The notes under the pieces are model-generated. The model had not been told where the DNA came from. It did not search any database and worked only from the letters and a program-made list of their open reading frames with translations. The position numbers and the translations under genes were made by a program. This document shows, in pieces, positions 24,313 to 60,132 of a stretch of DNA of 64,000 nt. Location: contig JAUYBL010000013.1 of the NCBI GenBank assembly GCA_030693065.1, forward strand, positions 124,001 through 188,000. The letters run 5' to 3'. This stretch comes from Methylococcaceae bacterium (GTDB lineage: Bacteria > Pseudomonadota > Gammaproteobacteria > Methylococcales > Methylomonadaceae). Every line of letters starts with the position of its first letter. The first letter of the stretch is position 1.

Positions 24313-24591
24313 ATGAAAAAAGTAATTAAATTATCGATGGTCGCTTTAGTTGCAAGTTTGGTTGTTGGTTGTGCCAGCACTTCAGACATCGAAAATCTGC
24401 AATCACAAATTGATGGCTTGAAAACTTCTGTTGCACAAGCTTCTGCTGATGCTCAAAATGCTCAAAGCGCTGCTGCTGATGCTTCTGCTAAAGCGGCTGC
24501 TGCTGAATCTGCTGCTAACCGTGCAGCTCAGTACGCGCAAGACACTAACAGCAAATTGGACAACCTGTTCAAGAAATCACAGCTGAAATAA
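24313..24591 (+). CDS. Lpp/OprI-like alanine-rich outer membrane lipoprotein
   Basis: A 92-residue protein with signal peptide and lipobox (VASLVVGC, Cys20), followed by a coiled-coil trimer type sequence of alanine-rich heptads (SADAQNAQSAAADASAKAAA) and a C-terminal LDNLFKKSQLK. It resembles Lpp and OprI, which tie the outer membrane to peptidoglycan through a C-terminal lysine; the last residue here is Lys. A Shine-Dalgarno AAGTAAGGAAA precedes the ATG and a strong terminator follows, as for a highly expressed monocistronic gene. Confidence 0.87.
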   Translation: MKKVIKLSMVALVASLVVGCASTSDIENLQSQIDGLKTSVAQASADAQNAQSAAADASAKAAAAESAANRAAQYAQDTNSKLDNLFKKSQLK

Positions 24592-47431: not shown

Positions 47432-50400
47432 TCATTCCACTCTGACAGAACGAGTTGGATCAATTTCACGGGAATAATACGGAGTGCAATGTAATTTTTT
47501 AACGAAAATTGCCATCATATGAGTTGGCGTTAATGTGCCGTTGGCAAGACCAGCTTCATCTTCTGTATGCACTCTATCGATAAAATCTCTGTCCCATTCG
47601 GATTCTCGATTGAAATTGTGACCAAAGCATCGATCCACAAAAATATCTATTGCACTTCCAAAACCGATGAATTTTTCGCACTGGAATCGCTGTAATAGCA
47701 AAGGCAGAACATCTTGTGCTCGAACTCCTTCAAAACCCTCTTTACTGCAATCCCAATTGTCGTATTTTTTCTCAAGCCTATTTAGTAGCACGTTAAATTT
47801 ATAACTCTCTGGCAACTCTTTCCAAAACTTATTGACGATTTTTAAAGATTCTGGCCAACGCTGATGACCATTTCGCCCAATCATGTCGCTAATTATAAAA
47901 CTACCATTGGCATGAAGAGCATTACTAATTTGGTCAAACAAGTGTTCGAGTCGTGTTACATGATGCAGAGACTGGTTGGCAATGACGCCATCATATTTTT
48001 TTCTTGCAACCCAAGTATTGAAATCGGCCTCCACAAAACTCATGTTGTCTAGCACACCGTTTTCTTTGGCAATCTCTTTACCACGATCAAGCATCACTGG
48101 ATTGATTTCAAGACACTCAAGAATAAAGTCATTAAAACCAGAATTGACTAAATTCTTTGCGACGGACACTTCCAAATCGCAATTCCCCGCACCAACACTT
48201 ATAAAGGTCGCAATTGCGCTACCGGTTCGATTTTTTGCTTCAAATAAATTAGAAGAGAAAAACTGGGCTATCGTACTAAATCCAGCGTCTTTGAATATTG
48301 GTGCCAAGTATTTATTAGACCAATAATGATAAATATCTGGAAGGTCGTGAACGTTTACTTGTTTTTCGTATATTGCTAACTCCTGCTGAATTTTTTTTTG
48401 GTAGGCTTCGTCAATATTGTTAGTTGAGGATTGCTGCGTTTTCTTGTCGACATCGGTTAGTACATTAGAATCGGGAGCATAAAGAGTTAATGGCTTATTA
48501 TTTCGAATAACCTTGATACTCAATCCAGAGAGAATATCAGCCAATATTCTGAATGCCGCCTCAGCTCCCCAAGAGTTTTCCGCAAAAGTTAATCCATTTT
48601 GGCTGATTTTCTCCCATAGGACTTCATCTTGATAAATTTTTACAACAGCATCGGCTAATGCTTTAGCCCCCTCTGCAACCAAAATATTTTCACCATCGGT
48701 TAACAACATACCTTCTGCAGCCAGCGGTGTGGCGACAACCGGTAAACCTACGGCTATCGCTGATCCGATTTTACCTTTAATGCCCGCACCGAAGCGCAGC
48801 GGGGCAACCGAGACACGCATTTTGTCAAGCAGTGGCGTCAGGTCTTCGACAAAACCTGTGATTATGATGTCTTCCGATGCCAATGCTTGTATATCGGCGG
48901 GCGGCTTGCTGCCAACAGCATAGAAGCGGACACCAGGTAGCTGTTTGCGTAGCAAGGGCATTACTTCTGTGACGAAATAATGCACCGCATCGACGTTCGG
49001 AGTGTGCTGATAGCCGCCTACAAAAACAATGTCTCTGCGCTCTGAAAAAGATATACTCGTCCCCTGCACATTCATAATCAATGGGAATACATGAAGTATG
49101 GCATCAGGCAATTCAGCGTGCAGAAGTTCAAACTCGGCGGTGCTATGCACAATTGAAGCGTCGGATGCACGGATGGCTGCCAGCTCGCACTGTTTCATTT
49201 TGTCAGCTTCTTTTTGTTTGACTTTATCTGATTGAAGCTCTGCTTCGCGTGACATTCGCAAAAAGTGCAAGTCTACCGTGTGATAGAGCACTTTGGCTTT
49301 GGGGCAAAACTTGCGAATCATTTTTAAGTGGCGCGTCACCACTCCTGGGCGGAACAGGAATGCTAAGTCATAGCGGTCGCCGCAATCTTTTACGTGCTGT
49401 TCAACGTTAGTGACAAAAGGTGCGTACAACACCTCAATACCAGCTCGTTGCAGTTCCGTAGTGTATTCAGGCATATAGAGAAAGTTGTCTTCAGGGATAA
49501 ATGTCACCTGAAAATCCATCTCACGTAGCAACAGTATTAAGTTGAGTACTGTAATGGAGCCTGCATCCTGGTTCGGAGTGGGGGTACAGTGATCAATCAC
49601 CAGAGCGCGTCGTGTTGCCCGACGATCTTTGGCATTATCTGCATCCATGCCGGCAGGTTGATGGGTTTGTAGGTGCTCTTTCCAACGATCAAAGAGTTTT
49701 TTGCTGTTTTCAATTTGATAGGCTTTTGTGCCTTGTGATGTGTCGGTGCCTGACGTCACTCCCTCATAATGAATCACTGTAGACAACGGTTGATAAATCA
49801 CACGATAGTCACGGGCTCGGATTTTTAATGCAAGGTCTGAATCTTCGCAGTAGGCAGGTAAATATTGTTCGTCAAAACCACCCAATTCTGTAAACAACAC
49901 CTTGGGAACCATGATGGATGCACCTGAGCAATAATCTACTTCTCTGGCATAGTTATAAATGGGAAGGAGTGGGTCTTGGAACCGCCCAAAGTTCCAAGCG
50001 CTGCCATCTTGCCAGATTATGCCTCCAGCTTCTTGTAATCTGCCATCTGGATAAATCAGCTTGGAGCCTACTAATCCGGTTTTCGGGAATTCTTGGAAGG
50101 TTCGCACCAGTTCATCCATCCAGCCCAAAGTAACTTCAGTGTCATTATTCAGGAAGTAAAGATATTCGCCGTTGGCCGCATTAGCCCCGACGTTGCAAGA
50201 ACGAATGAAACCTTGATTTTGTTCGTTGCATATTAGACGGATGCCGTTTACGTTGCTCAATATATTCGCTGAATTATCAGGTGAGCAATCATCTACGACG
50301 ATGATTTCGAAACTGCTCTGCGGAAGATTTATCGCAATTGAAGCTAGGCAGCGTAAAGTGTAATCGACCTTTCCGTAGATTGGAATAATGACAGAAACTA

Positions 50401-52483
50401 GCGGATTTTTTGATAGAGGTATCACTATAGAGCTAGCATAGTCGGAAGAGAATGCTGAGTCTTGCTCCGAGATTTCGTGAGTTGTGTCTTTGTGTGTATT
50501 TGATGTCGGGATACTCAACACCGGAATAGTTGTTTGATGGCTACCGCTTCTTAATAGAATTCCTGGAAAATATTTTGCAAGGAAGTTTCGATGTAACGCT
50601 TTTGTTTGGTAGTCCAGTGGAAGCGCTTGATAGATAGGCTTAATTATCCGAAGAGTTTCCGTTACGTAGCGTTTTGTTTGTTGCTTTGGCGTTGAAACCC
50701 ATCGCCGCGCTTCGCGTAGCGGCAAAGTGAGTCGCCAAGAATTGCTTTTGGTAATTATCAGTAATCGGGTGCGTTCTTCCTTGAGTTCTAGGTCTAATCG
50801 CAAGGCCCATTCACCTCTTCTAACTGTTTCGTCCGAAAGGGTAGCGATATGCCCGTCGTGTTCAGCCAAAGTTTGATTCAGATCATCAATCTGCCTATCT
50901 CGCTCTGCTATGGCCTTGTTGAAGTTAGAGATTTGTTCATCGCGCTCGGCTAGGGCCTGGTTAATGTTGGTGACCTGTTCATTGAGTTCAGTCACCGTTT
51001 GATTCAGACTGCCGAATTGCTCATCGCGTTCTGCTAAGGCTTGGTTGACGTTGGCGATATGCTCATCGCGTTCGGCCAGGGTTTGGTTGACATTGGCGAT
51101 TTGCTCATCGCGTTCAGCCAGAGTTTGGTTGGCGTTGGCGATTTGTTCATCGCGTTCGGCTAGGGTTTGGTTGACGTTGGCGATATGCTCATCGCGTTCA
51201 GCCAGAGTTTGGTTGACGTTGGCGATTTGCTCATCGCGTTCAGCCAGGGTTTGGTTGACGTTGGCGATTTGCTCATCGCGTTCGGCCAGGGTTTGGTTGG
51301 CGTTGGCGATTTGCTCATCGCGTTCAGCCAGGGTTTGGTTGACGTTGGCGATTTGCTCATCACGCTCAGCCACCACACCGTTGAGGTTGTAAATAGCCTC
51401 AGCAGAGAGTCGGCTGCTAGATAGCAATACCTCCCTCATTCTTGCTGCATCCTCTAACGTACTGGGAATACCTTCTTCTTCGTTCAATCCAATTACAAAG
51501 GCTACAGCACGTCGCTGGTCAAGATACTCGCGTGCTGCCAGCAAGCACTCAGCGTCAATATCGTGCTTTCGAAATATTTCCAGTACCTGACCTTCAATGA
51601 TTTGATAAAAGCTGCGTTCTCGCTCAGTAAAAATTGCGCGATGTAGGTTGGCATCACTTAAATCGATAGACGACAAATCTATATGAGCAAGTTTCTGCAG
51701 TATCTGTTCCCGATAATTTATGTTCGAGCTGACCTCATCCATGTCGACTACAACATCGCAATCTTTACGCCCTGTAATATAAGCGTAAAGCCATAGGCCA
51801 AAAAAGAGGCAATAATCGGCTTCAGGTGATATTGGGTGAGCGTAGCTGTAAATTAGTTTTGTCTTGTTGTCATCTCCCGGCAAACACAACAAATCCCGAG
51901 AGTCCATCACTTCCTTTAGAACTGCAGGAAGATTTGGTTGGGAATAGATGAGTCTAGGCGTTGCTGAAATGTAGTTGTCAACTTTGTATGAATACCATTG
52001 ATCCCATGGATTTCTGAGTAAAAATATGTGTTTTGATTGGTAGTTAGCCTTGATCCATTTAACTCTTCCCACAGTTCTGGTGCATTGAAGCACCGGTTTT
52101 CTATGACTACCTTCAATCAAGGTATCGATATATGTTTTTAACTCGGCTGATTTATCATGTGCGTCCATAAAGAACAAATCAAAACTTAGCTTTGGGTTAA
52201 AGGTCTTTTTGATGGCTGGCAACAAATGGGTGTATTCGTCAAAATACCCGCCCGAAAGGAAGTTATGCCTTAGTAGTGCTTTTAACTGCTCCTTTTGCCC
52301 CGTAAGGTTATTCAGTTCAGTAGGGAGAGAGGCAATAACCTCATGCATCGGTTCGTGATATACGTGATAAAGGCCGCTAAGCTTAAGTGCATTATAAAAA
52401 AAAGTGCTTCCGGAACGGAAAAGTGAATGTACAAAGGTGGCCGCAGGCGGCGGGGTTTTTTTAATACTGTGTTTACGATTCAT
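47432..52483 (-). CDS. 1683-residue fusion: sulfotransferase-like, coiled coil, GT2, GT4, methyltransferase
   Basis: Residues 15-290 resemble a sulfotransferase ([15 protein letters not shown] as PAPS loop; [14 protein letters not shown] as the second motif). Residues 371-552 are 13 repeats of 14 residues, consensus [14 protein letters not shown], a coiled coil. [12 protein letters not shown] linker follows, then a GT2 domain (about 695-935; [27 protein letters not shown]), a GT4-like domain (about 962-1310; [33 protein letters not shown]) and a methyltransferase domain (about 1400-1560; [14 protein letters not shown]). It is upstream of none of the other export genes but directly follows wzt. 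It may build and cap the glycan, with the coil setting length; that is inference. Confidence 0.85.
50828..51373 (-). repeat. 13 tandem 42-bp repeats inside the fusion gene
   Basis: Thirteen in-frame units of 42 bases encode 14-residue coiled-coil repeats. The first eight units (nearest the N-terminal side) are nearly identical at DNA level; the other five are diverged. Near-identity makes them prone to gain or loss of units by slippage without a frameshift. Confidence 0.92.
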
Positions 52484-53802
52484 AAAGCGGCTTCGGAAAT
52501 AGAGAATTCAATTTTTGGGTAGAGCTGCGCGGAACCGCCAACAGTTTCACCATCACGGCCGAGACTTTTGAACAATAAGGTGTCCATTCGACGCTGGAGG
52601 AAAACAAGGCCATCTGCATGGTCACCGGAATGAACCCCACATGTTAGGTAATAAATTCCGGGGCCAAGGTTATTGGTAAGGTTGAACTTTATTTGCAGTT
52701 CGTCGCCCGGAGCATAATCTCGCTGATAAAGTGCTTGATCAGCAGTGTTGGTGCCAAATATGCATATTCCTTCGCGGTTCGTTATCATTATGCCAAAAAC
52801 AGGTTTGGCGACAAACCCTGCAAAGCAAACCCGATATGAAATCACGAACTCCATTCCCGCATTCATAACATTCAGTTTTTGCTGTGACTTGTTGGTCAAG
52901 GTAATGTCTAAAATGGAAACACGACCATCGCCATAAATTTTTTCGCTGCTTGCAAGAAGCTCAGGATCAAGTTGAGCAGGTTCATCATCGAGCTTTTGAT
53001 TAGATGTATTGAGTTTGTTTTTGCCTTTGGACGCACCAAACAAATCCCTCTCATACTCAATGCAAACATCTTTTGCACTGCCGTAGTTGCGCATCGCGCC
53101 TTGGCTTAAATAAATAGCCGCGTTACAAATTTTTTTTACTGTGTCTGTGTCGTGGCTAACAAAGAGCAGCGTTACTCCTGATTGATTTAGTTCATCTATC
53201 CTACGCATACATTTACGCTGAAAAGCTGCATCGCCAACTGCAAGTGCCTCATCAATAACCAGTACTTGTGGCTCGACGTTAATCGCTACTGCAAAGGCCA
53301 GTCTCACGACCATACCGCTCGAATAGGTCTTAACAGGTCGTTCGATAAATTGTTCAATATCTGCAAAAGCAACGATTTCATTGAAACGTGCATCGGTTTC
53401 TTCTTTGCTTAGTCCCAGCACTGCAGCGTTCATATACACATTTTCGCGGCCAGTAAATTCGGGGTTAAAGCCCGAACCCAGCTCCAGCAATGCCGCGATG
53501 CGGCCACTAGTTTGAATGCTGCCGCCCGTCGGGTGCAGTGTGCCGCAGATCATTTGCAACAAAGTTGATTTGCCGCTGCCATTGCGACCGATTATACCTA
53601 CGGTTTCGCCTTTTTTTACTTCGAATGAAATATCCTTAAGCGCCCAAAACTCATTAAAGTATTGCCTAGGTGTTACCCCGACAAGTCTCTGTAAGCGAGG
53701 AGCGACAAACTGTTTGAGCCGGTCGCGTGGGGTGTCGTAAATTTGGTAGCATTTACTGAGGTTTTGGACGCGAATGGCAATATCATCAGAGGACATCAGC
53801 AA
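52480..53802 (-). CDS. wzt: Wzt, polysaccharide ABC exporter ATPase with C-terminal extension
   Basis: The 440-residue protein has an ABC domain (about 1-245) with Walker [10 protein letters not shown], the signature [14 protein letters not shown] and Walker [13 protein letters not shown], and a C-terminal domain (about 290-440) with beta-strand pattern ([33 protein letters not shown]). In E. coli O8/O9a exporters this domain binds the modified glycan end. Its presence suggests that chain termination is recognised before export. It overlaps wzm by 17 bases at the start and the fusion gene by four bases. Confidence 0.94.
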
Positions 53803-54637
53803 ACCCTTTTCTGGTTTTTTGAAACCAAGCGTAACCTATCCAAGCGATTGTCGTGGCAGTGAATGTGTAAATGCCCAGGCCAAGCCAATCTGGCTGGCGC
53901 CCCCATATCAGCACTTCCCGTGCCTGTTCGATAATAAAGGTGAGGGGGTTGGCCATTAGCCAAGGACGGAATTCTTCTGGTAGCGCTGTCACAGGAAAAA
54001 AAACAGGCGCCAGGAACATCATAACCGTTGTGATGATGCCGATTGTTTGTCCAACATCGCGCAGGAATACGCCCAAGGAAGCCAGTATCCAGCCAAGTCC
54101 AAGGGTAAGAATGATGAGTGGCAGCAACACCAGCGGTGTAAAGATAGCGGTCCAGTGCACATAACTGTTGAAGATAGCAAAGGCGATTAGCAACACACCT
54201 AAGCTGATTAGGCTGTGAAATAGAGCTGCACCCATGCTGATAACAGGGAGTATTTCTAGTGGAAAAACGACTTTTTTGACGTAATTAGCATTGCTAAGAA
54301 TCAAGCTGGGCGCGCGATTTAAAACCTCAGCAAATAGGCCATGCACAATCATACCGACAAACAGCACTACCGCGAACTGGGCTTTGCTCTCTTCACTATC
54401 AACACCCCAGCGGGACTTGAAAATGACTGAGAATACAAAGGTATATACGGTAAGCATCAGCACCGGGTTAAAAAAGGACCAGGCTAAACCCATTGCCGAT
54501 CCTTTATAACGGCCTAAGACTTCGCGTTTGGTCATTTGCGCGATCAGCTGGCGGTTATGCCAGAGACTTCTACCCAGTGCTGCAAGTGATGTAGGTTGCG
54601 GAGCGTGAGGATTGATCGCTGTTTGTGAGTTGCTCAT
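53786..54637 (-). CDS. wzm: Wzm, polysaccharide ABC exporter permease
   Basis: The 283-residue protein has six membrane helices and the ABC-2 pattern (REVLGRYKGSAMGLAWSFFNP, VKKVVFPLEILP, FLRDVGQTIGIITTVMMFLAPVFFP). With Wzt it exports lipid-linked polysaccharide to the periplasm. Its ATG overlaps the stop of the small upstream frame (ATGA). The C terminus overlaps wzt by 17 bases. Confidence 0.94.
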   Translation of the reverse strand: MSNSQTAINPHAPQPTSLAALGRSLWHNRQLIAQMTKREVLGRYKGSAMGLAWSFFNPVLMLTVYTFVFSVIFKSRWGVDSEESKAQFAVVLFVGMIVHGLFAEVLNRAPSLILSNANYVKKVVFPLEILPVISMGAALFHSLISLGVLLIAFAIFNSYVHWTAIFTPLVLLPLIILTLGLGWILASLGVFLRDVGQTIGIITTVMMFLAPVFFPVTALPEEFRPWLMANPLTFIIEQAREVLIWGRQPDWLGLGIYTFTATTIAWIGYAWFQKTRKGFADVL

Positions 54638-55843: not shown

Positions 55844-57646
55844 ATGGCCGATAACTACGACGATTACAGCCGCGAAGAATTGCTTCGCGAACTTCGCTTG
55901 CGCGACCGGCGGCCTCGCTTTGGCTTGGTGTGGGAGCGTAAAGAGATTGAGCACGAAAAAGCGGTAAATGATGATTTTGTTGCGCTGGATTTTGATCCCG
56001 CCTTGTCTTGTGGCGAGGCGCCTTATCGCAATTTGATTATCGAAGGCGATAACTTTGACGCCTTACGCTATCTGCGCATGACTCATGCCGGTAAGATCAA
56101 ATGCATTTACATCGACCCCCCTTACAACACCGGCAATCGCGATTTTATCTACAACGACCATTTTGTCGACAAGGAAGATGCTTACCGGCATTCCAAGTGG
56201 CTCGAATTTATGTACCGACGCTTGCAATTGGCGCGGGATTTATTGGCAGAGGATGGAGTGATCTTTGTTTCGATTGATGACAACGAGGTGTTTAATCTTG
56301 CGCCATTGATGAATCAGGTGTTCGGGGAGCGGAATTTTATTGCCACAGTCATTTGGCAAAAGGTTTTTTCACCAAAAAACACTGCCATGCACTTTTCAGA
56401 CGATCACGAATATGTGTTGGTTTATGCGATCAATCGTGATGTTTGGCGACCAAACGCTATACCAAGATCGGAAGCGCAAGATAAAGCATATAAAAATCCA
56501 GATAAAGATTCTCGAGGAGCTTGGACATCAGGTGATTGCTCCGCAAGAAATTTTTATAGCGAAGGCACATATCCCATAACGTGTCCTTCGGGGAGAATCA
56601 TAAATGGTCCGCCTCCAGGCAATTATTGGCGTTTTTCTAAGAAGCGACTAGATGAACTTAATGCAGATGATCGAATTTGGTGGGGAAAAGATGGAAATGG
56701 AGTTCCTCGCTTAAAACGTTTTCTTACAGATGTTAAACAAGGCGTGGTTCCTCAAACTCTATGGAAATATGAAGAAGTGGGTCATACGCAAGATGCTAAG
56801 AAAGAAGTTCAGGAAGTCATGCAGTTTGAAGATACCGCTTCCGTGTTTTCTACGCCGAAACCTATTCGTCTGATTGAGCGCATTCTACGCATCGCCACCC
56901 AACCCGACGACATCGTGCTGGATTTCTTCGCCGGTAGCGGCACTACCGCTCACGCCGTGATGAAACTCAACGCCGAAGACGGTGGCAACCGTCGTTTTAT
57001 TTTGGTGTCCAGCACCGAGGCGACTGAAGAGCAAATCCCCCCCAACCCCCCTTTTGCAAAGGGGGGAGTAGATAGTGTTATTGCAAATAACGAAGCAGAT
57101 GACGCGATTACAAAGGGAAAAACACATAATCCTGACGCCAATGAAGAGACAAAAACGCCCCCCTTTGAAAAAGGGGGGCAGGGGGGATTTTCAAATAAAA
57201 ATCTGTGCCGCGATGTCTGCGCTGAACGGGTAAGACGCGTGATACAAGGCTACACGAATAAAAAAGGCGAAGTCGTTGCTGGATTGGGCGGTGGCTTTGC
57301 CTACCTTCGCACTCACCGCCTGCCCGCCGAAACCCTATTCAGCAGCATTCAACATGAAGCTATTTGGACCGCCTTGCAGTTGATTCATGCCGAAAGCTTG
57401 TCGCCGTTTGTGGCCGATGCGCTGATTCAACAAGCCGACCTGGAAAACAGCACGGTTTTATATCTGCCAAAGATTAACGACGCCGTTTTGCAAGCGCTAA
57501 ATACTGTGCTTGTCAGCGCGTTGACATTGGTGGTTTACGCCTGGCAACCGGGCTTATTGAGGCAACATTTTGAGGATGCTCGATTAAGCTTTTTGCCGAT
57601 TCCGCAGTTTCTGGTGGATCGCTTTGGCACTGGGAGTAAGGCATGA
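55844..57646 (+). CDS. Type III-like Mod DNA methyltransferase
   Basis: The 600-residue protein has DPPY at residues 91-94 (DPPYNTGNRDF) ahead of FAGSG at 362-366, the order of a beta-class N6-adenine or N4-cytosine methyltransferase. Type III Mod proteins begin with a YSREELL/GL.W.R segment like the one here. Residues 397-449 are an in-frame insertion (PPFAKGG and PPFEKGGQGG) bounded by palindromes, falling before the conserved NLCRDVCAERVRRVIQG. It overlaps res by four bases (ATGA). The recognition site cannot be read from sequence. Confidence 0.92.
   Translation: MADNYDDYSREELLRELRLRDRRPRFGLVWERKEIEHEKAVNDDFVALDFDPALSCGEAPYRNLIIEGDNFDALRYLRMTHAGKIKCIYIDPPYNTGNRDFIYNDHFVDKEDAYRHSKWLEFMYRRLQLARDLLAEDGVIFVSIDDNEVFNLAPLMNQVFGERNFIATVIWQKVFSPKNTAMHFSDDHEYVLVYAINRDVWRPNAIPRSEAQDKAYKNPDKDSRGAWTSGDCSARNFYSEGTYPITCPSGRIINGPPPGNYWRFSKKRLDELNADDRIWWGKDGNGVPRLKRFLTDVKQGVVPQTLWKYEEVGHTQDAKKEVQEVMQFEDTASVFSTPKPIRLIERILRIATQPDDIVLDFFAGSGTTAHAVMKLNAEDGGNRRFILVSSTEATEEQIPPNPPFAKGGVDSVIANNEADDAITKGKTHNPDANEETKTPPFEKGGQGGFSNKNLCRDVCAERVRRVIQGYTNKKGEVVAGLGGGFAYLRTHRLPAETLFSSIQHEAIWTALQLIHAESLSPFVADALIQQADLENSTVLYLPKINDAVLQALNTVLVSALTLVVYAWQPGLLRQHFEDARLSFLPIPQFLVDRFGTGSKA
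57032..57191 (+). mobile_element. Inverted G/C-rich palindromic element inserted in frame in mod
   Basis: A 36-37 base unit (57032-57068: AAATC, C-run, CAACCCCCC, TTTTGCAAA, G-run) recurs in inverted form at 57156-57191. Each unit is itself palindromic. The 160-base segment between and including them keeps the mod frame open. Similar NPPFAKGG-type sequences are dispersed in genomes of cyanobacteria and Proteobacteria. Flanking target duplication is not evident. Confidence 0.75.
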
Positions 57647-60132
57647 GTGTTGCGCCAAAAGGGTACCAAAACGATGCGGTTAAAAACGCACTGGAGATTT
57701 TTCGTTATGCGGAAAACCAGTTGCAACAGGTTGACGACGTTACCAGCGAACGAGCTATCAGCGCTTTTAACGGTTGCGTGTTATTAGAGGCGCCAACCGG
57801 TGCCGGTAAAACTTTAATGGCTGGCTTGATTGCCGAAAGCTTTGCCAGGCCTGATCATCGCGATAATGCCAAGATTATCTGGTTTTGGTTTACCCCGTTT
57901 GCAGGTTTGGTTGAGCAAGCCAAAAGCGCGTTAAAGCGAGATTTTAACGGCCTAAAAATCCGCGATTTGAGTTGTGATCGTAAAAGTTATTCGGCCAGTA
58001 GCGGCGATGTGTTTGTTACTACTTGGGCATCGGTTGCCGCGCGCAACGCGGAAACCCGAAAGCTTAGGAGCAGTGGCGATTTGTCATTATCGCTGGATGA
58101 GTTTATCCCGGAATTGCGCGAGGCCGGGTTTCGGATTGGTGTGGTGGTGGATGAGGCACACCATAGTTTTACCAAAGCCACGGAAACGGTCAATTTTTAC
58201 CGGGAAGTGATGCGGCCGGAATTTTCCTTGCTGATTACCGCTACGCCGGATGATGCCGATGTCGAGAAGTTTAAAAAAGCCGCCGGCTTGGCAATGGTGC
58301 ATCGCATTCAAGTATCGCGGCAAAATGCCGTTGATGCCGGCTTGATTAAAGAAGCAGTAAAGTCGATTGCTTATCTGGTGCCGGATGATCAAAAAGAGCT
58401 GGTTGATTTGTCGGCGACGGCGCTGGAAGACGGCTGGCGCACCCATCAAGCCATCAAGGCGCAATTGTCTGAAGCTAAAATCCGGTTAACGCCGTTGATG
58501 CTGGTGCAAGTCGGTAATACCGGCAAAGCAGGCGAGACAGCCATTGCAGAAACTAAACAGCGCTTGCTGAACTTGGGTGTGCCGGAAGAGGCGATTGCCT
58601 GGTACACCGCCGATGACCCTAACGATGATTTACTGGCGGTGGCGCGCGATGAAAGCAAGGAAGTATTGATTTTTAAAGTCGCGGCCGCGTTGGGCTTTGA
58701 TGCGCCGCGCGCCTTTACGTTGGTGTCGTTACGCGGCACTAAAAGCACCGATTTTGGCATTCAAGTCGTCGGGCGTATTTTGCGGGTGCCTCCGCGATTG
58801 CAACCGATGGCGATTAGTAAAACCTTGCCGGAGGTATTGCGCTTTGGTTATGTATTTTTAGCTGACTCGGAAAGTCAGGGCGGTTTGATTGGCGCTGGCG
58901 CAAAAATTAATGCGATTGCCACACAGATGTCGGAGATCACGCCTTATACGATGGTCGTGAAAGTCGGTGGCCAGACCGAAGTGCAGGTTGCCGTTAATGG
59001 ACAAACCTCGTTATTGCCGCAACCTTATGTTGCGCCGGATTGGCAACCGGCAGACGCCGGAAGCGATAGTGATCAATCGCAAATTTCTTATTTGTCAGGT
59101 TCAACCTTACCTATTCTTGAGGATTGGTTGATGCCGCAAATAGCGCCGCATATTAACGAGCCAGGCCAACCGGCGCCTTATCGTCCCGCGTTGGTTGGTA
59201 ATAGCCGGTTTGCGTTGCGCGAAGGCTTACCAAATCGCTTTAAAACCGAACGTTTGCCACTCAGTACCGATGAGCTGGTGCAATGTATCGCTAAGCGTAT
59301 TGATTTGAGTGCGCAGGTTTTGAATGCCGGGTTACGAAAAAATCTGAAAATCACTCGTACCACCGTCGACGATATTTTTGGTAAGCCTGATGAAACGGTC
59401 GATAGCATTCAAGCTCGTTTATCAAATGCTGACATTGCCCGGCGAGCGCAAAAAGTGTTGTTTGATGCTGAGTTTATCGATCCACGCGATCTGCATCCGT
59501 TGTTATTGGCGCGATTGCATTCCGAATATAACGAGCATCAAGGCATGGAACTAAGCGAGCAGGAACTGGCGCGCGCTCTGAATTTGATTTTGGCGACTTT
59601 TCCGCGCTTGGTGCGCGATGCTTCCCGCGTCTGTGCCGCCCGTTTTAAGCAAGTTTTTGATGCCGCTGTATTGCCGCCATTTATTGAAGCGCCGGAGTGC
59701 ATTAGCCGCTCTCGGCTTAATGTGTATGGCGTAATGCCGCAAGATCTTAACGACACCGAACGCCGTTTTGCTGCTTTGTTGGATGCAGATATTAGTAATA
59801 CGGTAGCGTGGTGGCACCGCAATGAGCCACGTAAACCGTGGTCAGTGGGTATTGTTATGCCGGATGGCGATCGTTATTTTCCTGATTTTATTGTGGGAGT
59901 GAACGATCGCCATCACGGTGACGGTGTGTTGCTGGTAGAGACTAAGGGCGGGCATATCATCAATTACGGTGAGACTTTGGAAAAAATCAACGCCGAGCAT
60001 AAGCAGTACGGCAAGCCGTTAATGCTGACCCCGCAAGATGATGGTAGATTCTGGATGATGCTTTATATCGAATCTACTCGCAAAATAGAACCGGATCAGG
60101 TGTTTCGGGTTGAAAATATGGGGCAGTATTAG
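57643..60132 (+). CDS. Type III-like Res subunit: DEAH helicase with C-terminal nuclease
   Basis: The 829-residue protein has Walker A APTGAGKT at 50-57, the DEAH box at 170-173 (VVDEAHHS), LLITATPDD (motif III) and QVVGRILRVPP (motif VI). Near the C terminus PDFIVGVNDRHHGDGVLLVETKGG has the D-x(n)-ExK pattern of a PD-(D/E)xK nuclease. It should translocate on DNA and cut with the Mod subunit. Mod and Res sizes (600 and 829) fit a type III restriction system; the Res is at the short end. Confidence 0.9.
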   Translation: MSVAPKGYQNDAVKNALEIFRYAENQLQQVDDVTSERAISAFNGCVLLEAPTGAGKTLMAGLIAESFARPDHRDNAKIIWFWFTPFAGLVEQAKSALKRDFNGLKIRDLSCDRKSYSASSGDVFVTTWASVAARNAETRKLRSSGDLSLSLDEFIPELREAGFRIGVVVDEAHHSFTKATETVNFYREVMRPEFSLLITATPDDADVEKFKKAAGLAMVHRIQVSRQNAVDAGLIKEAVKSIAYLVPDDQKELVDLSATALEDGWRTHQAIKAQLSEAKIRLTPLMLVQVGNTGKAGETAIAETKQRLLNLGVPEEAIAWYTADDPNDDLLAVARDESKEVLIFKVAAALGFDAPRAFTLVSLRGTKSTDFGIQVVGRILRVPPRLQPMAISKTLPEVLRFGYVFLADSESQGGLIGAGAKINAIATQMSEITPYTMVVKVGGQTEVQVAVNGQTSLLPQPYVAPDWQPADAGSDSDQSQISYLSGSTLPILEDWLMPQIAPHINEPGQPAPYRPALVGNSRFALREGLPNRFKTERLPLSTDELVQCIAKRIDLSAQVLNAGLRKNLKITRTTVDDIFGKPDETVDSIQARLSNADIARRAQKVLFDAEFIDPRDLHPLLLARLHSEYNEHQGMELSEQELARALNLILATFPRLVRDASRVCAARFKQVFDAAVLPPFIEAPECISRSRLNVYGVMPQDLNDTERRFAALLDADISNTVAWWHRNEPRKPWSVGIVMPDGDRYFPDFIVGVNDRHHGDGVLLVETKGGHIINYGETLEKINAEHKQYGKPLMLTPQDDGRFWMMLYIESTRKIEPDQVFRVENMGQY

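What the first reader, a model, noticed from the sequence alone, without database searches (positions are those of the whole stretch)
50828..51373. Near-identical 42-bp tandem repeats encode a coiled coil in a glycan-assembly protein: a possible tunable molecular ruler
Thirteen 14-residue repeats separate an N-terminal sulfotransferase-like domain from GT2, GT4 and methyltransferase domains in a gene directly behind wzt. In E. coli O8/O9a, WbdD caps the glycan by methylation, its coiled coil length sets chain length, and the Wzt C-terminal domain reads the cap. Here a coil, a methyltransferase and an extended Wzt occur together. Eight units are nearly identical in DNA, so unit number could change by slippage without frameshift. 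As one continuous helix, 182 residues would be about 27 nm (0.15 nm per residue). The ruler role is inference.
Basis: partly seen in the sequence, partly recalled or inferred. Interest (0 to 1): 0.8.

Follow-up and report, generated by a model that had tools for sequence, protein, structure and literature searches.

The report
Sulfotransferase-headed ruler protein for surface glycans
A bacterial gene joins a probable sulfate-adding enzyme, a long rod made of 13 near-identical repeats, and sugar-polymerising enzymes, and comparison with relatives suggests that the rod sets how long a surface sugar chain grows before a sulfate cap ends it and a matched exporter recognises that cap.

Summary
The 42-bp repeats are real: 13 units at 50825-51370 on the minus strand encode one straight helix in a 1,683-aa protein translated just behind wzt. 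In characterised rulers the chain terminator sits at the end of the coil away from the polymerase. Here that is the N-terminal sulfotransferase-like domain, not the C-terminal methyltransferase.

Four results support this. (1) Relatives keep the GT2-GT4 polymerase but swap the N-terminal domain between sulfotransferase and methyltransferase, and the Wzt cap-reading domain follows the swap, not the polymerase. (2) In 399 other genomes, six of the seven best matches to this cap-reader are followed by a sulfotransferase, four of them from an unrelated subfamily. (3) The Trp that stacks on the methyl cap in Aquifex Wzt is Arg or Lys in all 16 sulfotransferase loci; E. coli O9a Wzt, which reads an anionic methyl-phosphate cap, also has Arg there. 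(4) A full-length relative is 58-71% identical, yet its coil is shorter by exactly 154 residues, or 11 units.

I read it as a new, probably sulfate-capping, variant of the WbdD/WbbB-type terminator. No biochemistry supports it yet, and variation within a strain could not be tested.

The parts
47432..52483 (-). multi-domain terminator-ruler-polymerase gene, 1,683 aa
   Evidence: intact ORF; ATGA overlap with wzt
51494..52444 (-). N-terminal sulfotransferase-like domain (residues 14-330), proposed chain terminator
   Evidence: 10-sequence alignment with invariant motifs; AF2 pLDDT 85; Foldseek lists dominated by sulfotransferases; Pfam sub-threshold
52403..52417 (-). 5'-phosphosulfate-binding loop RSGST, residues 23-27
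   Evidence: R23, G25, S26, T27 invariant and S24 nearly so in 10 homologs
51989..52015 (-). 3'-phosphate-binding motif R157-x7-S165 (RNPWDQWYS)
   Evidence: R157 and S165 invariant in 10 homologs
50771..51457 (-). predicted single continuous helix (residues 343-571), the ruler
   Evidence: AF2
50825..51370 (-). 13 tandem 42-bp units (14 residues = two heptads), residues 372-553
   Evidence: core positions I7, V/L10, L14
50564..50758 (-). end of coil: [11 protein letters not shown] motif plus amphipathic segment, possible membrane contact
   Evidence: motif shared with ST, MT and FkbM relatives; hydrophobic moment 0.67; membrane role is inference
49754..50395 (-). GT2 glycosyltransferase module
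   Evidence: Pfam PF00535, E=4e-25
48626..49036 (-). GT4 glycosyltransferase module
   Evidence: Pfam PF13692, E=6e-26
47828..48205 (-). C-terminal methyltransferase domain, on the polymerase side of the coil
   Evidence: Pfam PF13847, E=2e-10; kept in ortholog L046, absent from L019 and L021
52480..53802 (-). wzt, ABC transporter ATPase with C-terminal carbohydrate-binding module (residues 271-440, 52483-52992)
   Evidence: Pfam ABC_tran and Wzt_C
52591..52593 (-). Wzt Arg404, at the position of the methyl-stacking Trp362 of Aquifex aeolicus Wzt
53786..54637 (-). wzm, ABC-2 membrane subunit
   Evidence: Pfam PF01061

Best explanation
The gene encodes a single-chain glycan assembly machine for an ABC-transporter-dependent surface polysaccharide. 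The C-terminal GT2 and GT4 modules extend the lipid-linked chain near the membrane (the methyltransferase next to them probably decorates the repeat unit). A straight helical rod of 13 repeats, probably a coiled coil, about 27 nm for the repeats and 34 nm for the whole predicted helix, holds the N-terminal sulfotransferase away from the membrane. When the growing end reaches it, the sulfotransferase puts a sulfate on the non-reducing end and stops growth. The cap-reading domain of Wzt, with Arg404 in place of the methyl-sensing Trp, then admits only capped chains for export. Unit number in the near-identical 42-bp array sets the rod length and can change in 14-residue steps without a frameshift. 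Shown: the domains, the helix prediction, the co-exchange of cap domain and cap reader, the Trp-to-Arg/Lys correlation, and the 11-unit length difference in an ortholog. Inferred: sulfotransferase activity, sulfate as the cap, the ruler function here, and slippage as the way the length changes.
For: Position: the terminator lies distal to the polymerase in every characterised case (PMC11231755), and insertions or truncations of the WbdD coil lengthen or shorten chains (PMC5082667). Sulfotransferase: RSGST loop and R-x7-S invariant in 10 homologs, and Foldseek lists dominated by sulfotransferases in two libraries. Swap: L019 and L088 keep the polymerase (normalised score 0.63) with a methyltransferase head and their cap-reader similarity is at floor (0.08); L048 keeps the sulfotransferase head with a different polymerase (0.11) and cap-reader similarity is 0.54. 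Partial Mantel: cap-reader versus cap domain r=0.47, p=0.0002; versus polymerase r=-0.18, p=0.96. Reverse search: 6 of the 7 best non-self cap-reader hits in 399 genomes precede a sulfotransferase, base rate 5 of 41, p=2e-5. Pocket residue: Arg/Lys in 16 of 16 sulfotransferase loci versus 3 of 39 others (p=3e-11); in the blind-drawn loci 5 of 5 versus 0 of 36 (p=1e-6). That column is Trp362 of A. aeolicus Wzt, which stacks on the 3-O-methyl cap and whose loss abolishes binding (PMC9445017). E. coli O9a Wzt (2r5o; methyl-phosphate cap) has Arg there and is the best PDB match of both sulfotransferase-associated cap-reader profiles, whereas the methyltransferase-associated profile matches Aquifex at 1e-25. 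Ruler: one helix; ortholog L046 differs by exactly 154 aa; 14-residue arrays in 26 of 46 such genes.
Against: No biochemistry and no glycan structure. The sulfotransferase domain is below Pfam's threshold and the Foldseek matches are weak (TM-score up to 0.44 by target length for the sulfotransferases in the PDB, E about 1e-3). The related loci are not statistically independent, and at the coarse level of sulfate versus methyl the ATPase domain tracks the cap as well as the cap reader does. L049 and L040 have cap readers unlike the window's, although both keep the basic residue. Three loci with Arg have no sulfotransferase as next gene (L141, L142, L144); L144 may make a methyl-phosphate cap. 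APS kinase is encoded elsewhere in the genome and its presence beside such loci is not specific to sulfotransferase heads. In Aeromonas salmonicida a sulfotransferase gene beside wzt was noted but no sulfate was found in the O chain (PMC4483657).
Confidence: 0.68

Rival explanations
1. One reading: the C-terminal methyltransferase caps the chain by methylation and the coil sets the distance between it and the polymerase.
For: A methyltransferase, a coil and an extended Wzt occur together; the methyltransferase is conserved at about 71% in ortholog L046.
Against: The methyltransferase lies on the same side of the coil as the GT modules, so the coil does not separate them. It is absent from L019 and L021, which share the polymerase. 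The Wzt pocket has Arg instead of the methyl-stacking Trp.
Confidence: 0.1
2. The N-terminal domain sulfates internal or side positions of the repeat unit, and the coil is a flexible tether rather than a ruler; length is set elsewhere.
For: Many bacterial polysaccharide sulfotransferases act on repeat units (general knowledge).
Against: The head swaps with methyltransferase heads of the WbdD-like position, the cap-reading domain follows it, and the coil is predicted to be one stiff helix.
Confidence: 0.14
3. The head has the sulfotransferase fold but makes another anionic cap or only binds the chain end; the Arg pocket reads that instead.
For: Arg also occurs in E. coli O9a Wzt (methyl-phosphate cap) and in L144, which resembles the K. 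pneumoniae O7 methyltransferase-kinase layout.
Against: The phosphosulfate-binding motifs are invariant and an unrelated sulfotransferase subfamily occurs with the same type of cap reader.
Confidence: 0.08

Closest known systems
WbdD of E. coli O9a / K. pneumoniae O3 (methyltransferase-kinase terminator with trimeric coiled-coil ruler)
   Same: Catalytic head, long coil, membrane-proximal end, gene beside wzt with a cap-reading domain; Arg at the cap-pocket position of its Wzt
   Different: Head is a methyltransferase-kinase; the polymerase WbdA is a separate protein; the coil is not described as a near-identical DNA repeat array
WbbB (K. pneumoniae O12) and ORF6 of K. pneumoniae O7 (single-chain terminator-coil-polymerase)
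   Same: Same order: terminator, coil, two glycosyltransferase modules in one chain
   Different: Caps are Kdo and methyl-phosphate; here the head is sulfotransferase-like and there is an extra C-terminal methyltransferase
Aquifex aeolicus WzmWzt cap-reading domain
   Same: Same fold family and same pocket position
   Different: Trp362 reads a 3-O-methyl cap; the window Wzt has Arg404
Sulfotransfer_3 / P-loop sulfotransferases such as mycobacterial Stf0 and STF9
   Same: PSB loop and R-x7-S motif, predicted fold
   Different: Sequence similarity below Pfam thresholds; fused to a ruler coil and polymerase

Membership tests
Coiled-coil chain terminators of ABC-dependent glycan assembly (WbdD/WbbB/O7-ORF6 type) | Gene beside wzm-wzt whose Wzt has a carbohydrate-binding module | tested here: met
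   wzm, wzt with Wzt_C directly upstream
Coiled-coil chain terminators of ABC-dependent glycan assembly (WbdD/WbbB/O7-ORF6 type) | Extended coiled coil between catalytic head and polymerase end | tested here: met
   one predicted helix 343-571 (monomer model; oligomer not modelled), 13 two-heptad units
Coiled-coil chain terminators of ABC-dependent glycan assembly (WbdD/WbbB/O7-ORF6 type) | Catalytic head distal to the glycosyltransferase modules | tested here: met
   ST-like head residues 14-330; GT2 697-910, GT4 1150-1286
Coiled-coil chain terminators of ABC-dependent glycan assembly (WbdD/WbbB/O7-ORF6 type) | Cap-reading domain of Wzt matched to the terminator | tested here: met
   co-variation and Arg/Lys at the pocket position
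Coiled-coil chain terminators of ABC-dependent glycan assembly (WbdD/WbbB/O7-ORF6 type) | Head caps the non-reducing end and coil length sets chain length | not testable with these tools
   needs glycan analysis and mutants
Coiled-coil chain terminators of ABC-dependent glycan assembly (WbdD/WbbB/O7-ORF6 type) | Membrane-associated amphipathic helix after the coil | tested here: inconclusive
   amphipathic segment after the SWRLT motif, moment 0.67; no proof of membrane contact
WbdD proper | N-terminal methyltransferase and kinase head | tested here: not met
   no methyltransferase or kinase family in residues 1-371
PAPS-dependent sulfotransferase | 5'-PSB loop and 3'-PB motif | tested here: met
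   RSGST and R157-x7-S165 conserved in 10 homologs
PAPS-dependent sulfotransferase | Significant match to a curated family or solved fold | tested here: inconclusive
   Pfam below cut-off; Foldseek lists dominated by sulfotransferases but E about 1e-3 and TM-score up to 0.44
Slippage-variable (contingency) repeat | Near-identical units and unit-number differences between relatives | tested here: met
   units 1-8 at 83-95% identity; 154 aa = 11 units between window and L046
Slippage-variable (contingency) repeat | Copy-number change within a strain or clonal culture | not testable with these tools
   one genome per species is held

The most novel reading that the evidence does not exclude
Sulfate is an unrecognised chain-terminating cap of bacterial ABC-exported glycans, added by at least two unrelated sulfotransferase subfamilies. 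A single pocket residue of Wzt (Trp for methyl, Arg or Lys for anionic caps) reads the cap chemistry and has switched more than once (L040 carries Lys in an otherwise methyl-type cap reader). Ruler length evolves by gain and loss of 14-residue units in a DNA repeat array.
Probability: 0.55. Interest if true: 0.8.

Novelty: new variant of a known kind. Interest (0 to 1): 0.7.

Why it matters
Known caps in this export route are methyl, methyl-phosphate and Kdo, with pyruvate as a candidate (PMC10629545, PMC9445017); sulfate would be a new one. The swap pattern shows how such systems can change cap chemistry at all: the head and the exporter's reader change together while the polymerase stays, which meets the constraint stated in PMC10629545. 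The Trp/Arg position gives a sequence rule that could predict cap chemistry from wzt alone. The repeat array offers a natural series of ruler lengths with which to test the ruler model outside E. coli.

Tried and rejected
Linkage of APS kinase (cysC) as evidence for sulfation: cysC is in every genome tested, is not adjacent in the window genome, and stands near the wzm-wzt loci both of sulfotransferase heads (L046, L113) and of a methyltransferase head (L019), so it was not used. Unit quantisation in other homologous pairs (L019-L079, L022-L103, L073-L087 and others): differences are not multiples of 14, probably because these pairs are too diverged; only window-L046 is clean. [quoted passage not shown] First NBD control used a stale file and was redone. 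ST-A against ST-B by profile comparison: no detectable similarity. Three paper searches that combined sulfotransferase with Wzt, coiled coil or ABC-dependent export found no description of a sulfotransferase terminator.

Full report
What is there. The minus-strand ORF 47432-52483 encodes 1,683 aa and starts inside the wzt stop codon. Tandem Repeats Finder reports one strong 42-bp array; in AERD register 13 units of 14 residues occupy 372-553 (window 50825-51370). Units 1-8 are 83-95% identical in DNA, and most differences among them are synonymous. Each unit is exactly two heptads, with I7, V/L10 and L14 as core positions. AlphaFold2 gives one helix, residues 343-571, with pLDDT above 90 across the repeats. 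Domain order: sulfotransferase-like head, coil, SWRLT linker, GT2, GT4, methyltransferase. Upstream are wzt with a Wzt_C cap-reading domain, and wzm.

The head. Residues 14-330 fall below Pfam's sulfotransferase cut-off (E=0.21), but ten homologs share an invariant RSGST-type loop and R157-x7-S165, the two phosphosulfate-binding signatures (the reading of the motifs rests on general knowledge of the family). The predicted fold (pLDDT 85) matches mostly sulfotransferases in the PDB and viral libraries, weakly.

Relatives. A Nitrospirota MAG (L046) has a full-length ortholog: head 58%, GT2-GT4-methyltransferase 71% identical, but the coil is shorter by exactly 154 residues, 11 units. A Desulfocapsa contig (L047) breaks inside the array. 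Nitrosomonas eutropha Nm57 (L048) and another Nitrosomonas (L049) have the same head on different glycosyltransferases. More distant heads (L038, L040, L113, L134) also stand directly behind wzt-type genes, without polymerase modules in the same chain, as in WbdD. Conversely L019, L020, L021 and L088 share the window's polymerase but carry a methyltransferase or an unrelated sulfotransferase head.

Survey. Of 90 wzt genes examined, 46 have a coil-bearing gene within three ORFs; 26 of these 46 have a 14-residue periodicity, against 6 of 709 other ORFs. One (L061) has 24 units. Heads fall into several methyltransferase classes and two sulfotransferase classes, ST-A (window type) and ST-B (Sulfotransfer_3 type), which show no similarity to each other by profile comparison.

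Who reads the cap. In the characterised systems the Wzt C-terminal domain admits only capped chains. If the head makes the cap, this domain should follow the head and not the polymerase. It does: partial Mantel r=0.47 (p=0.0002) for the head and -0.18 (p=0.96) for the polymerase, both with the ATPase domain controlled. A caution: at the coarse level of sulfate versus methyl the ATPase domain tracks the head too. In a reverse test, a profile of ST-A-linked cap readers was run against 399 genomes of the phylum. Six of the seven best non-self hits precede a sulfotransferase: two ST-A, and four ST-B, which were not used to build the profile.

A pocket residue. In an alignment of 55 cap readers the column of window Wzt Arg404 is Arg or Lys in 16 of 16 sulfotransferase loci and Trp in 34 of the 36 non-sulfotransferase loci of the survey. 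The alignment to Aquifex aeolicus Wzt places this column at Trp362 (PDB index 363, offset by one as for His355), the residue that stacks on the 3-O-methyl cap and whose replacement by Leu abolishes binding (PMC9445017). E. coli O9a Wzt, which reads a methyl-phosphate, has Arg at the same place (2r5o) and is the best PDB match for both sulfotransferase-linked profiles. L040, whose cap reader otherwise resembles the methyl type, has Lys there, so the change happened more than once. Other columns also separate the groups, but only this one includes L040. Arg is not exclusive to sulfotransferase loci: L141, L142 and L144 have it; L144 resembles the methyltransferase-kinase head of K. pneumoniae O7, which would also be anionic (inference).

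Mechanism. Shown: anatomy, co-exchange, pocket correlation, unit-wise length difference. Inferred: the head sulfates the chain end, the rod sets the length at which this happens, and Wzt exports only sulfated chains. The predicted helix would be about 34 nm (229 x 0.15 nm), against about 20 nm for WbdD (PMC5082667) and about 11 nm for L046, so L046 should make much shorter chains. The C-terminal methyltransferase probably modifies the repeat unit.

Novelty. The ruler principle and the single-chain layout are known (PMC11231755). Sulfate is not among the caps listed in the papers I could read (PMC10629545, PMC9445017); the 2019 survey of terminators was not available. I file it as a new variant of a known kind.

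Noticed in passing
L061:4391-5396: A methyltransferase-headed relative behind wzt has about 24 units of the 14-residue repeat with higher-order periods of 168 and 210 bp, more extreme than the window.
   Followed up: partly
L063:11375-13006: A second 14-residue repeat gene (ELNTTLHERNIT units, about 10 copies, 93% match) lies in the same glycan region as a terminator with a 42-bp array.
   Followed up: no
L047:3319-3428: The Desulfocapsa contig ends inside the 42-bp array, which suggests that such arrays break short-read assemblies and that copy numbers need long reads.
   Followed up: no
L144:2942-8293: 1,783-aa protein behind wzt with methyltransferase, an unannotated domain, coil and WbsX-type glycosyltransferase; resembles the K. 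pneumoniae O7 methyltransferase-kinase terminator, and its Wzt has the Arg pocket residue.
   Followed up: partly
window 55844-60132: A DNA methyltransferase-like gene (600 aa) and a DEAD/helicase-like gene (829 aa), looking like a type III restriction-modification pair, lie beside the glycan cluster on the opposite strand (read from sequence only).
   Followed up: no
window 24459-24518: Short 27-bp tandem repeat, 2.2 copies.
   Followed up: no
G000 (genome): A second Wzt_C-bearing transporter gene is present in the same genome (two matches), so another capped glycan system may coexist.
   Followed up: no
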